From Reyranella massiliensis 521 (lineage in GTDB: Bacteria; Pseudomonadota; Alphaproteobacteria; Reyranellales; Reyranellaceae), in the NCBI GenBank assembly GCA_945862125.1, contig CAMAYC010000045.1, positions 1-34,241 on the forward strand: a stretch of DNA of 34,241 nt, read 5' to 3'. Position 1 is the first letter of the stretch, and the number at the start of each line of letters is the position of its first letter. Made by a program: the position numbers and the translations under genes. Below are positions 32,917-34,241 of the stretch, piece after piece. A model generated the notes under the pieces. That model made no database searches. It was not told the origin of the DNA and saw only the letters and a program-made list of their open reading frames with translations.

Positions 32917-33069
32917 GCCCAGCGCGCCTCGCTCGGCGTCCGACAGCTTCATCCGACCGCTCAGCTGGGCCTTCATAATGCGGTTCTCGGCCGCCAGATA
33001 TTCGTTCCGAGCCAGCAGCTTCTGGTCCACCGTCCCCGTCACGTAGGCCAGGATACGCGCCCAATCCAT
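32917..33069 (-). pseudogene. Transposase/integrase N-terminal remnant
   Basis: The 51 residues MDWARILAYVTGTVDQKLLA followed by RNEYLAAENRIMKAQLSGRM and KLSDAERGALG match from memory the N-terminus of a family of integrase-core (rve) transposases widespread in alphaproteobacteria. After LSDAERGALG the recognisable sequence breaks off; the open frame continues with unrelated residues into the SDR gene. The catalytic DDE core is not in the window. The frame therefore looks like a broken fragment left after insertion or deletion. The bases 32706-32916 between it and the SDR gene show nothing else recognisable. Confidence 0.65.
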
Positions 33070-33146
33070 AAACGCCCCCTGCCCCGACTCTCGACGACGG
33101 CATCACGGGCCGTCCGAAAAATTGTACCGGGCCGCCTCCGGCACAG

Positions 33147-33521
33147 CTATCCGACCCCACCCAACGCATTGGTTTCTCGGCCGCTTCTGCTTTTTGCCCT
33201 CACGGGGTCGGCGATGCGATAAATGATGCGCCCTTCAGGGCCGGACACAAGGGCCATACGCGACAGGCTGATGCAGAACTGTGCGTTCCTCACGAAGCTG
33301 TCGGCCTCACTGATCAGCAATTCCAGGCCCGCGCGCGCCGTATCGTTGATGCCGGGAGCGCGCTCGAGCATGACGTGAAGCAACAAGCCCTTGTCGCGGT
33401 CAGTGCCCGTGGCGAAGCGTGCGGTCTCGTCCGGCATGGCGATCCGATCCGGATCTTCAAAAATTGAGTCACTTCCGGCGATGGCTGCCACGGCTCCGAT
33501 GGCGTCGGCTAGCGTCCGCAC
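33147..33521 (-). CDS. Unrecognised protein, start uncertain, possibly truncated
   Basis: The frame encodes 124 residues from GTG 33521 (VRTLADAIGAVAAIAGSDSI...) and ends at TAG 33147-33149. The in-frame reading continues upstream to a stop at 33609-33611 without any ATG, giving RFCALLLPDPSIYLQSARRS and GQIDDLLPG. This upstream part looks protein-like, so the true gene probably began further upstream and has lost its start. No ribosome site precedes GTG 33521. Codon use is coding-like to about YRIADPV and then becomes irregular near the stop. I do not recognise the family. The junction coincides with the end of a direct-repeat copy. Confidence 0.4.
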   Translation of the reverse strand: MRTLADAIGAVAAIAGSDSIFEDPDRIAMPDETARFATGTDRDKGLLLHVMLERAPGINDTARAGLELLISEADSFVRNAQFCISLSRMALVSGPEGRIIYRIADPVRAKSRSGRETNALGGVG

Positions 33522-33586
33522 GCCCGGCAGAAGATCGTCGATCTGGCCGCTGCGGCGCGCGGACTGCAGGTAGATGGACGGATCGG

Positions 33587-33623
33587 GAAGCAGGAGGGCG
33601 CAGAAGCGTCAGCGGTCAGCTAC
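33587..33623. repeat. Direct repeat copy 1 (37 bp)
   Basis: Bases 33587-33623 are identical to 33837-33873, beginning GAAGCAGGAGGGCG and ending GGTCAGCTAC, exactly 250 bases apart. Flanking bases differ on both sides. On the minus strand this copy contains the last codons and the stop of the downstream small precursor-like gene. It points to duplication of a unit or to insertion/recombination. Confidence 0.9.
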
Positions 33624-33761
33624 CGGACCGGATCGGTGCGAAGCGTGATCGGTGCAACCAAGAGTAGCCCTAGCCCCCTTGGGCGGGTCGAGCGCCTCGT
33701 CGCTCAGCTCGTCTGTGAAGTCTTCCACTTCGGCTTCGGTCGTCATTTCCAGTTCCGTCAT
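33609..33761 (-). CDS. Candidate RiPP/bacteriocin-type precursor peptide B
   Basis: The 50-residue product starts at ATG 33761 with AGGAGA about six bases upstream. The leader is MTELEMTTEAEVEDFTDELS followed by DEALDPPKGA. The segment LSDEALDPPKGA fits the double-glycine leader form LSxxELxxIxGG with a GA end; the hydrophobic -4 position is proline. The proposed core is RATLGCTDHASHRSGPVADR (20 residues, one cysteine). It shares MTELE, the acidic stretch and LSDEALD with the second gene at 33895-34008. The end of the frame lies in direct-repeat copy 1, so the C-terminus may have been altered by the duplication. No modification enzyme is visible inside the window. Confidence 0.5.
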   Translation of the reverse strand: MTELEMTTEAEVEDFTDELSDEALDPPKGARATLGCTDHASHRSGPVADR

Positions 33762-33836
33762 GTCGTTCTCCTGTGATTGCACAGTTGCAGAAAGCAGAGC
33801 CGCTGCTCCCGGCCCTCCCGCCGCATGCAACCGCAT

Positions 33837-33873
33837 GAAGCAGGAGGGCGCAGAAGCGTCAGCGGTCAGCTAC
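33837..33873. repeat. Direct repeat copy 2 (37 bp)
   Basis: This is identical to 33587-33623. On the minus strand it lies 21 bases after the stop of precursor gene A and before the ribosome site of precursor gene B. Together the two copies mark out a 250-base unit that contains gene B. Confidence 0.9.
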
Positions 33874-33894
33874 GAAGCAGCGAGCGCCGCCTCG

Positions 33895-34008
33895 TCAACG
33901 GTAAGAGAGACCGCAGACGCAGGAAGCTCCCTCGACCCGGTCGAGCGCCTCGTCGCTGAGGTCGTCGTTGAACTCTTCGGCTTCGATCTTCGTTTCGAGC
34001 TCAGTCAT
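33895..34008 (-). CDS. Candidate RiPP/bacteriocin-type precursor peptide A
   Basis: The 37-residue product starts at ATG 34008 with GGAG seven bases upstream. It reads MTELETKIEAEEFNDDLSDE followed by ALDRVEGASCVCGLSYR. LSDEALDRVEGA matches the double-glycine leader LSxxELxxIxGG with GA at the cleavage position and valine at -4. Cleavage after GA would release SCVCGLSYR, a nine-residue core with two cysteines and two serines. The strongly acidic leader and short Ser/Cys core are those of a peptide that is modified and exported, such as a lanthipeptide-like or related product. This is inference; the modifying and exporting genes are not in the window. It is the better preserved of the two copies. 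Confidence 0.55.
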   Translation of the reverse strand: MTELETKIEAEEFNDDLSDEALDRVEGASCVCGLSYR

Positions 34009-34117: not shown

Positions 34118-34241
34118 TCAGACCGCCTTGGCGGCGTTGAACTGCTGCTCGTAGTGGGCCCGCACCTTGGCCGCGTCGAAGTCGAGGAACGTGCCGCCGC
34201 TCTCGAAATGCTGGATGAACACGCGGCCCGTCGCGTAGCAC
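34118..34241 (-). CDS. Unrecognised protein, C-terminal 40 residues (5' end outside window)
   Basis: The minus-strand frame enters from beyond the window edge and ends at TGA 34118-34120. The visible end reads CYATGRVFIQHFESGGTFLD then FDAAKVRAHYEQQFNAAKAV. The codon pattern is GC-rich and coding-like. I do not recognise the family from this fragment. It lies 109 bases upstream of the candidate precursor gene A on the same strand, and no gene is seen in that gap. Whether it belongs to the same unit cannot be judged. Confidence 0.6.
   Translation of the reverse strand, partial: CYATGRVFIQHFESGGTFLDFDAAKVRAHYEQQFNAAKAV

What the first reader, a model, noticed from the sequence alone, without database searches (positions are those of the whole stretch)
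33609..34008. Tandem double-glycine-leader precursor peptides, candidate undescribed RiPP or bacteriocin locus
Two adjacent small genes (34008-33895 and 33761-33609, minus strand) each have a good ribosome site. They share MTELE, an acidic leader and LSDEALD, and each has GA at the same distance from LS. The pattern LSDEALDRVEGA matches the known double-glycine leader form LSxxELxxIxGG recognised by C39 peptidase transporters. The predicted cores differ (SCVCGLSYR and RATLGCTDHASHRSGPVADR), as is usual for paired precursors. The class is not one I can name, and the modifying enzymes would have to lie beyond 34241 or be supplied from elsewhere. The leader match is established knowledge; the function is inference.
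Basis: partly seen in the sequence, partly recalled or inferred. Interest (0 to 1): 0.8.

Follow-up and report, generated by a model that had tools for sequence, protein, structure and literature searches.

The report
Short-leader azole-peptide precursor gene array
Two tiny neighbouring genes belong to a bacterial family of peptide precursors that share a start segment but have ever-changing ends, probably turned into ring-containing natural products by one shared enzyme set elsewhere in the genome.

Summary
In detail: two tandem minus-strand ORFs (34008-33895, 33761-33609) share an acidic leader with LSDEALD and differ in the core. The same genome (Reyranella) has five more tandem copies on contig C153, with a TruD/LynD-like YcaO cyclodehydratase, SagB dehydrogenase, aminopeptidase N, DUF697 protein and part of a cyclic-peptide-type ABC exporter. 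The window ends inside another DUF697 gene. Leaders occur in 10 of 65 genus genomes and co-occur with this YcaO (Fisher p 5.7e-6). Most likely they are thiazole/oxazole (TOMM/LAP) precursors, modified in trans or by genes beyond the contig edge. LSDEAL is an L(X)4L motif of the kind that contacts YcaO recognition domains and resembles 'motif 2' of nitrile-hydratase-like leaders; here it is most of the leader. The C39 reading is weakened: the exporter shows no C39 match and Gly-Gly is not conserved, but one C39 transporter exists elsewhere in the genome. Unexpected: variable cores often end in a conserved 15-base tail with stops in all three frames, and all three are used; and related leaders are dispersed in about 32 copies in another alphaproteobacterium in which no YcaO was found. 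New variant of a known kind.

The parts
33895..34008 (-). precursor gene 1: leader MTELETKIEAEEFNDDLSDEALDRVEG, core ASCVCGLSYR, TGA stop before the tail
33609..33761 (-). precursor gene 2: leader MTELEMTTEAEVEDFTDELSDEALD, then PPKG and ARATLGCTDHASHRSGPVADR; its stop lies in the tail
33943..33960 (-). LSDEAL of gene 1: L(X)4L motif, proposed contact with the YcaO recognition (RRE) domain
   Evidence: invariant in 24 of 24 aligned members; role by analogy with MprE7/MprC and PatE/LynD (PMC12455567)
33690..33707 (-). LSDEAL of gene 2, same motif
33859..33873 (-). tail GTAGCTGACCGCTGA after gene 1 (stops in all three frames)
33609..33623 (-). tail GTAGCTGACCGCTGA; supplies VADR-stop of gene 2
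33812..33849 (-). inter-unit hairpin between genes 1 and 2; 33797-33850 folds at -35 kcal/mol, z -4.9; no T-run seen; no covariation support
34118..34240 (-). last 40 codons and stop of a DUF697-type protein cut by the contig end, like the DUF697 protein of the YcaO cluster
   Evidence: tblastn 55% to the C153 DUF697 protein, E 6.5e-9; no Pfam match on its own (40 aa)
32917..33200 (-). remnant of a sequence also found near precursor arrays in three other loci; looks like the N-terminal end of an insertion-sequence transposase (my reading, no family search run)
   Evidence: 82-85% identical stretches in L037, L038, L047 near arrays, and at two places in L039 not next to its precursor
33147..33586 (-). 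open gene fragment of unknown kind that begins where the last unit breaks off inside its hairpin
   Evidence: no Pfam match for 33147-33521; reading frame

Best explanation
Both genes encode precursors of thiazole/oxazole-modified peptides (TOMM, also called linear azol(in)e peptides). Proposed mechanism: the LSDEAL motif of the short leader docks, as an added beta-strand, on the recognition domain at the front of the C153 YcaO enzyme (shown: presence, fused domains, TruD/LynD likeness; inferred: docking). The YcaO cyclodehydrates Cys, and perhaps some Ser/Thr, of whatever core follows; the SagB-type enzyme oxidises azolines to azoles; the leader is removed, perhaps with help of the aminopeptidase N encoded next to SagB; the cyclic-peptide-type ABC exporter releases the product; DUF697 and SPFH proteins serve membrane scaffolding or self-protection (all inferred). 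One enzyme set serves at least seven precursors in this genome (inferred from one YcaO found). The units multiply as ~250-base tandem repeats; leader and tail are kept while the core changes, and the all-frame stop tail ends translation whatever the core length.
For: Own genome: five tandem copies on C153 with YcaO (TIGR03604 247.1 bits over 219.25; TIGR03882 leader-binding 112 over 36.9), SagB (TIGR03605 134.9 over 78.4), PepN, DUF697 and the first 410 residues of the exporter; one YcaO was found in the genome. Closest solved structures TruD and LynD over residues 14-763 of 767. Co-occurrence of leader and this YcaO in 65 genomes: 7 both, 3 leader only, 2 YcaO only, 53 neither, p 5.7e-6. Similar gene sets in other Reyranella and some further alphaproteobacterial MAGs. 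Cores: Cys 43 of 335 residues in frame against 28 of 590 in the two other forward frames (p 1.2e-5), Cys in 22 of 24. Leaders conserved, dN/dS about 0.40; cores hardly more alike than shuffles (1 of 120 pairs z > 3, mean z 0.71). The window ends in a DUF697 gene of the cluster's kind.
Against: No modifying gene lies in the window; C45 and C153 cannot be joined with the data held. Leader-only genomes exist (G001, G027, G043), and outside the genus two genomes with the leader family have no YcaO found (G124, G178). Wakeel 2025 found that the L(X)4L motif alone did not suffice for an NHLP leader and its YcaO (PMC12455567). Ser+Thr is not clearly enriched in cores. Gene 2 has PPKG where 13 of 24 members have RAEG and may be decaying. 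The AlphaFold model of the YcaO failed (mean pLDDT 32), so the RRE fold was not seen. No product, expression or binding datum exists.
Confidence: 0.78

Rival explanations
1. One reading: a double-glycine leader peptide system, cleaved after G-A/G-G and exported by a C39-peptidase ABC transporter, with or without azole formation.
For: LSDEALDRxEGG/A resembles motif 2 of NHLP/Nif11 leaders (ELSDEQLDAVAGG). The own genome holds one C39 ABC transporter at C123, NHLM_micro_ABC1-like, 593 bits for a 724-residue part against a cut-off of 853, with an ECG cysteine visible. No NHLP precursor over cut-off was found in the own genome, so that transporter lacks an obvious other substrate.
Against: The cluster's exporter family is TIGR01194-type without a C39 match. 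Residues after the leader are GA in 9, GG in 5 and other in 10 of 24 (fixed offset; a shifted GG in one or two members is not counted). C123 has no precursor of this family.
Confidence: 0.15
2. The window array is a decaying remnant: units copied and moved with an insertion sequence, no longer expressed or modified.
For: Transposon-like remnant and a truncated gene flank it; the last unit breaks off in its hairpin; gene 2 has PPKG for RAEG.
Against: Both ORFs are open with ribosome sites; gene 1 keeps RxEG and two core Cys; between the two leaders change per synonymous site exceeds change per replacement site (5.5 of 11 against 9.5 of 46).
Confidence: 0.17
3. Small proteins unrelated to RiPPs, for example regulators that share an acidic helix.
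For: Some genomes with many copies have no YcaO found.
Against: Linkage and co-occurrence with YcaO/SagB, Cys-rich variable ends, motif-2 likeness.
Confidence: 0.04

Closest known systems
NHLP-type TOMMs (nitrile-hydratase-like leader peptides; Haft 2010 PMC2887384, passages seen; MprE/MprC, PMC12455567, parts 1 and 2 of 3 read)
   Same: Motif 2 ELSDExLD directly before the core; fused leader-binding/YcaO enzyme (TIGR03882 + TIGR03604); hypervariable Cys-bearing cores; many precursors served by one enzyme; precursors may lie far from the enzymes.
   Different: Leader is about 25-30 residues, without the nitrile-hydratase-like domain (NHLP leaders average 87 in Haft Table 3); no match to TIGR03793; Gly-Gly not conserved; exporter without C39; YcaO forms a clade apart.
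Cyanobactin heterocyclases TruD/LynD with the short PatE-type leader
   Same: Enzyme is TruD/LynD-like over 14-763 of 767 residues; short leader with L(X)4L; the oxidase homologue in L043 carries a ThcOx-like region.
   Different: Precursors of 32-53 residues, apparently one core each; PatA/PatG-type proteases were not searched for, and none was met among the few genes that were identified.
Prochlorosins (Nif11 leaders, one promiscuous LanM; recalled, plus the start of the abstract of PMC10783134 in the listing)
   Same: One enzyme, many genomic precursors with conserved leaders and variable cores.
   Different: YcaO/SagB rather than LanM, short leader, tandem DNA units with a common three-frame stop tail.

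Membership tests
TOMM / linear azol(in)e peptide system | YcaO cyclodehydratase with TOMM leader-binding domain | tested here: met
   C153, same genome: TIGR03604 and TIGR03882 over cut-off; not on the window contig
TOMM / linear azol(in)e peptide system | SagB-type dehydrogenase | tested here: met
   C153 462-residue ORF without inner stop, TIGR03605 134.9 over 78.4
TOMM / linear azol(in)e peptide system | short precursor with conserved leader and hypervariable core rich in Cys/Ser/Thr | tested here: met
   Cys enriched in frame; Ser+Thr 0.167 in frame against 0.164 and 0.113, so only Cys is clearly enriched; cores unrelated
TOMM / linear azol(in)e peptide system | azole or azoline in the product | not testable with these tools
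   needs mass spectrometry
NHLP precursor family | match to the TIGR03793 leader model | tested here: not met
   no NCBIfam match for either peptide; the four own-genome TIGR03793 matches are below cut-off and on other contigs; the one translated is a nitrile hydratase alpha subunit with CTLCSC
NHLP precursor family | motif 2 ELSDExLDxVxGG | tested here: inconclusive
   LSDEALD invariant in 24 members, the Gly-Gly part not conserved
double-glycine / C39 peptide | conserved Gly-Gly or Gly-Ala at the cleavage point | tested here: not met
   14 of 24 members at the fixed offset
double-glycine / C39 peptide | C39-peptidase ABC transporter encoded with the precursors | tested here: not met
   cluster exporter without C39 match; one C39 transporter on another contig
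cyanobactin | PatA/PatG-type protease and macrocyclase | not tested
   no specific search was run

The most novel reading that the evidence does not exclude
The arrays are a frame-indifferent diversification device: each unit is a constant leader and a constant all-frame stop tail around an exchangeable core, and cores are swapped or inserted at DNA level, so that any length is translated and terminated and one leader-guided enzyme set modifies it. In related alphaproteobacteria the same leader motif has spread to about 30 chromosomal copies, including a genome in which no YcaO was found, implying a different or transferred modifying enzyme that reads the same motif.
Probability: 0.25. Interest if true: 0.85.

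Novelty: new variant of a known kind. Interest (0 to 1): 0.62.

Why it matters
It ties orphan small ORFs in Reyranella to a nameable enzyme set and gives a natural minimal leader: little more than the L(X)4L motif that Wakeel 2025 found necessary but not sufficient in a long NHLP leader. A natural enzyme that works with it would be useful for peptide engineering. The tandem units with unrelated cores between a constant leader and a three-frame stop give a testable case for how RiPP cores diversify. The dispersed copies elsewhere, near housekeeping genes and in part without a detected YcaO, pose an open question about which enzyme uses them.

Tried and rejected
Pfam and NCBIfam scans of the two peptides: no families. 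C39/double-glycine reading: not rejected outright, lowered. Hairpin as conserved RNA: strong fold in the window unit but no covariation support (covariation term -0.09; 1 of 25 pairs with both sides changed), and no T-run, so not called a terminator. AlphaFold model of the YcaO from five rows: failed, mean pLDDT 32, not used; no fold search run. NHLP in the own genome: only sub-cut-off matches, one of which was translated and is a nitrile hydratase. The truncated gene 33147-33586 has no match. Literature (open-access PMC only): 'DELSDEALDR' and 'SDEALDR' 0 papers; Reyranella with RiPP 7 papers, none about this by title; YcaO/TOMM/Reyranella 28 papers, 20 listed; nitrile hydratase/leader/YcaO/NHLP 39, 20 listed; tandem/hypervariable core 3; YcaO/SPFH/DUF697 26, 10 listed; no title or abstract start in these listings describes this family. 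Cox 2015 (PMC4603692) was searched for words only. Modifying enzyme for G124: ten genes near its arrays scanned; none is a known RiPP enzyme by its Pfam match, though one is of a methyltransferase family; no answer.

Full report
What is in the window. Two short minus-strand ORFs, 34008-33895 (37 aa) and 33761-33609 (50 aa), lie at the right end. They form a tandem repeat with about 250-base spacing: leader DNA 80-82% identical, plus an exact 37-nt repeat behind each. The window is all of contig C45 of a 5.2-Mb, 271-contig genome. Genus: contigs of same-genus genomes (G055, G023, G014) agree in length and position with records titled uncultured Reyranella sp., Reyranella massiliensis and 'Rhodospirillales bacterium URHD0017', so I call it Reyranella; some matching MAG titles carry other names.

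The family. In the own genome 9 matches were returned at E <= 10, of which 7 are family members: two in the window and five in tandem on C153 (ORFs 729-1847); the other two (E 0.64 and 2.2) were dropped. A 24-member alignment was made from eight Reyranella genomes; orthologues identical to a listed one (L039, L042), a cut-off copy (L047) and the divergent G014 copy were left out. Invariant columns are F13 and L17-S-D-E-A-L-D23. With this profile 14 of 65 genus genomes match at E <= 0.1; I count the 10 at E <= 1e-6.

The enzymes. C153 carries, beside its five precursors, a 768-aa YcaO protein, SagB-type dehydrogenase, aminopeptidase N, DUF697 protein and the first 410 residues of an ABC exporter cut by the contig end. 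YcaO: TIGR03604 and TIGR03882 over cut-off; nearest solved structures TruD, LynD, MusD. SagB of C153: 462 residues without a stop, TIGR03605 over cut-off. Exporter: the full-length homologue in L038 passes TIGR01194, 321.9 over 286.2, with no C39 match; the C153 piece is partial and below the cut-off. Relatives add an SPFH/Band_7 protein and an AurF-like diiron protein. C153's YcaO is the only one found in the genome. The last 40 codons before 34241 encode the end of a DUF697 protein like that of the cluster (55%, E 6.5e-9); the family search for DUF697 found only the C153 gene over cut-off (the window piece is too short to ring). So the window array stands next to a typical cluster gene.

Co-occurrence. 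YcaO of this kind (>1000 bits) is in 9 of 65 genus genomes. Both 7, leader only 3 (G001, G027, G043), YcaO only 2 (G007, G009), neither 53; Fisher p 5.7e-6. G102 (652 bits) and four weak partial matches were counted as absent. G001 has the exporter, SPFH and DUF697 genes between its precursors on a 4.8-kb contig, so its missing YcaO may be an assembly gap.

What the leader does. Haft 2010 (PMC2887384, passages) lists motif 2 of NHLP leaders as ELSDEQLDAVAGG. Sister YcaO genes about 40% identical (L062, L064, L065, L066) stand near ORFs with a long nitrile-hydratase-like segment that ends in a similar motif (read by eye; profile E-values there are weak); on G014:C33, the contig of L062 by YcaO position, five such precursors pass TIGR03793. 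In a tree of 14 YcaO proteins the nine of the short-leader kind form one clade and the four NHLP-associated ones another; two of the nine (L144, L145) are labelled by enzyme likeness only, since no precursor was found beside them, and L146 was in no group. The short leader is therefore motif 2 with an acidic front, without the NHLP domain; whether by loss or by gain is not shown. LSDEAL is an L(X)4L motif; its two Leu contact the YcaO recognition domain in PatE/LynD and matter in MprE7/MprC (PMC12455567, parts 1 and 2 of 3 read). In that study the motif alone did not suffice for MprC, which counts against simple transfer of the idea.

Cores. Cys makes 43 of 335 in-frame core residues against 5 of 299 and 23 of 291 in the other two forward frames (p 1.2e-5); Ser+Thr is not clearly enriched. 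22 of 24 cores hold Cys. Leader ends are 84% identical over 120 pairs, with dN/dS about 0.40, while only 1 of 120 core pairs exceeds z 3 against shuffles (the 16 tail-bearing members of 24).

The tail. GTAGCT(G/A)ACCGCTGA was found 30 times in 6 of 16 genomes searched, 0 times for the backward control; by coordinates all 30 lie within about 0.4 kb of a precursor, 7 of 7 in the own genome. Four of the ten leader-bearing genomes (G014, G027, G043, G046) have no copy, so the tail belongs to one part of the family only. It has stops in all three frames; random 15-mers do so at 2-5 in 10,000, a figure weakened by my choosing the 15 bases afterwards. The G-to-A variant turns TGA into TAA and keeps the stop. 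Of 24 members 16 have a tail within 150 nt; in 12 the stop is in the tail, using the three frames 5, 4 and 3 times; in 4, gene 1 included, a stop comes earlier. Of 37 look-alikes with up to 3 mismatches in 12 sources (some orthologous), 31 keep all three stops. Recent copying, not selection, could explain the sameness.

Mobility. A remnant at 32917-33200 is 82-85% identical to stretches near arrays in L037, L038 and L047 and to two places in L039 away from its precursor; it looks like a transposase end (my reading). An inter-unit hairpin folds at -35 kcal/mol, z -4.9, but without covariation.

Beyond the genus. Of 385 class-level genomes 5 match at E <= 1e-4, the own one and four others. In the stretches fetched around matches of G124 I count 32 precursor-like ORFs on nine contigs, near genes such as those of a gyrase/topoisomerase A subunit, MlaA, Dfp (CoaBC-like), MeaB, CobS-like and DsbD; no YcaO was found in G124 or G178. 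G445 has two short-leader ORFs beside a cluster with a 68%-identical YcaO and many elsewhere; its YcaO contig has the length of that of L059, RBC064. In one pair of syntenic arrays of G178 and G445 (L180, L173) the cores are alike (GCIPGGTFFSR and GCVPGGTLFSR); in another (L179, L170) they differ. So cores are not always hypervariable.

Verdict. Real, and most likely TOMM precursors with a minimal motif-2 leader; a new variant of a known kind. Steps shown: family, linkage, co-occurrence, composition, tail. Steps inferred: docking, azole formation, leader removal, export, function.

Noticed in passing
L174-L178, L185-L188 (genome G124): 32 precursor-like ORFs with leader MPKTDxKKIESEDVAELSDEALDR and Cys-rich cores, on nine contigs near housekeeping genes in a 2.5-Mb alphaproteobacterial genome (95% complete) in which no YcaO was found.
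   Followed up: partly
L165-L173 (G445), L179-L181 (G178): Dispersed short-leader ORFs in partly syntenic places in two species of one genus; some orthologous cores are conserved, others differ.
   Followed up: partly
L143:9923-12349 (own genome C123): NHLM-type ABC transporter with a C39 peptidase domain and no obvious substrate; no NHLP precursor over cut-off was found in this genome.
   Followed up: partly
window 33147-33586: Truncated open frame of unknown kind starting where the last precursor unit breaks off inside its hairpin.
   Followed up: no
L038:10080-11144, L050:13412-14488, L052:4553-5542: SPFH/Band_7 protein near the exporter in 7 of 11 short-leader loci with cluster genes (L037-L039, L041-L043, L050, L052, L058-L060; several are cut by contig ends), DUF697 in 7 of the same 11; not seen described for TOMM clusters's listing.
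   Followed up: partly
contig ends of C45, C153, G018:C539, G023:C186 and C189, G052:C59, G001:C86, G055:C241: Many precursor arrays lie near contig ends in Reyranella assemblies, so true arrays may be longer than seen.
   Followed up: no
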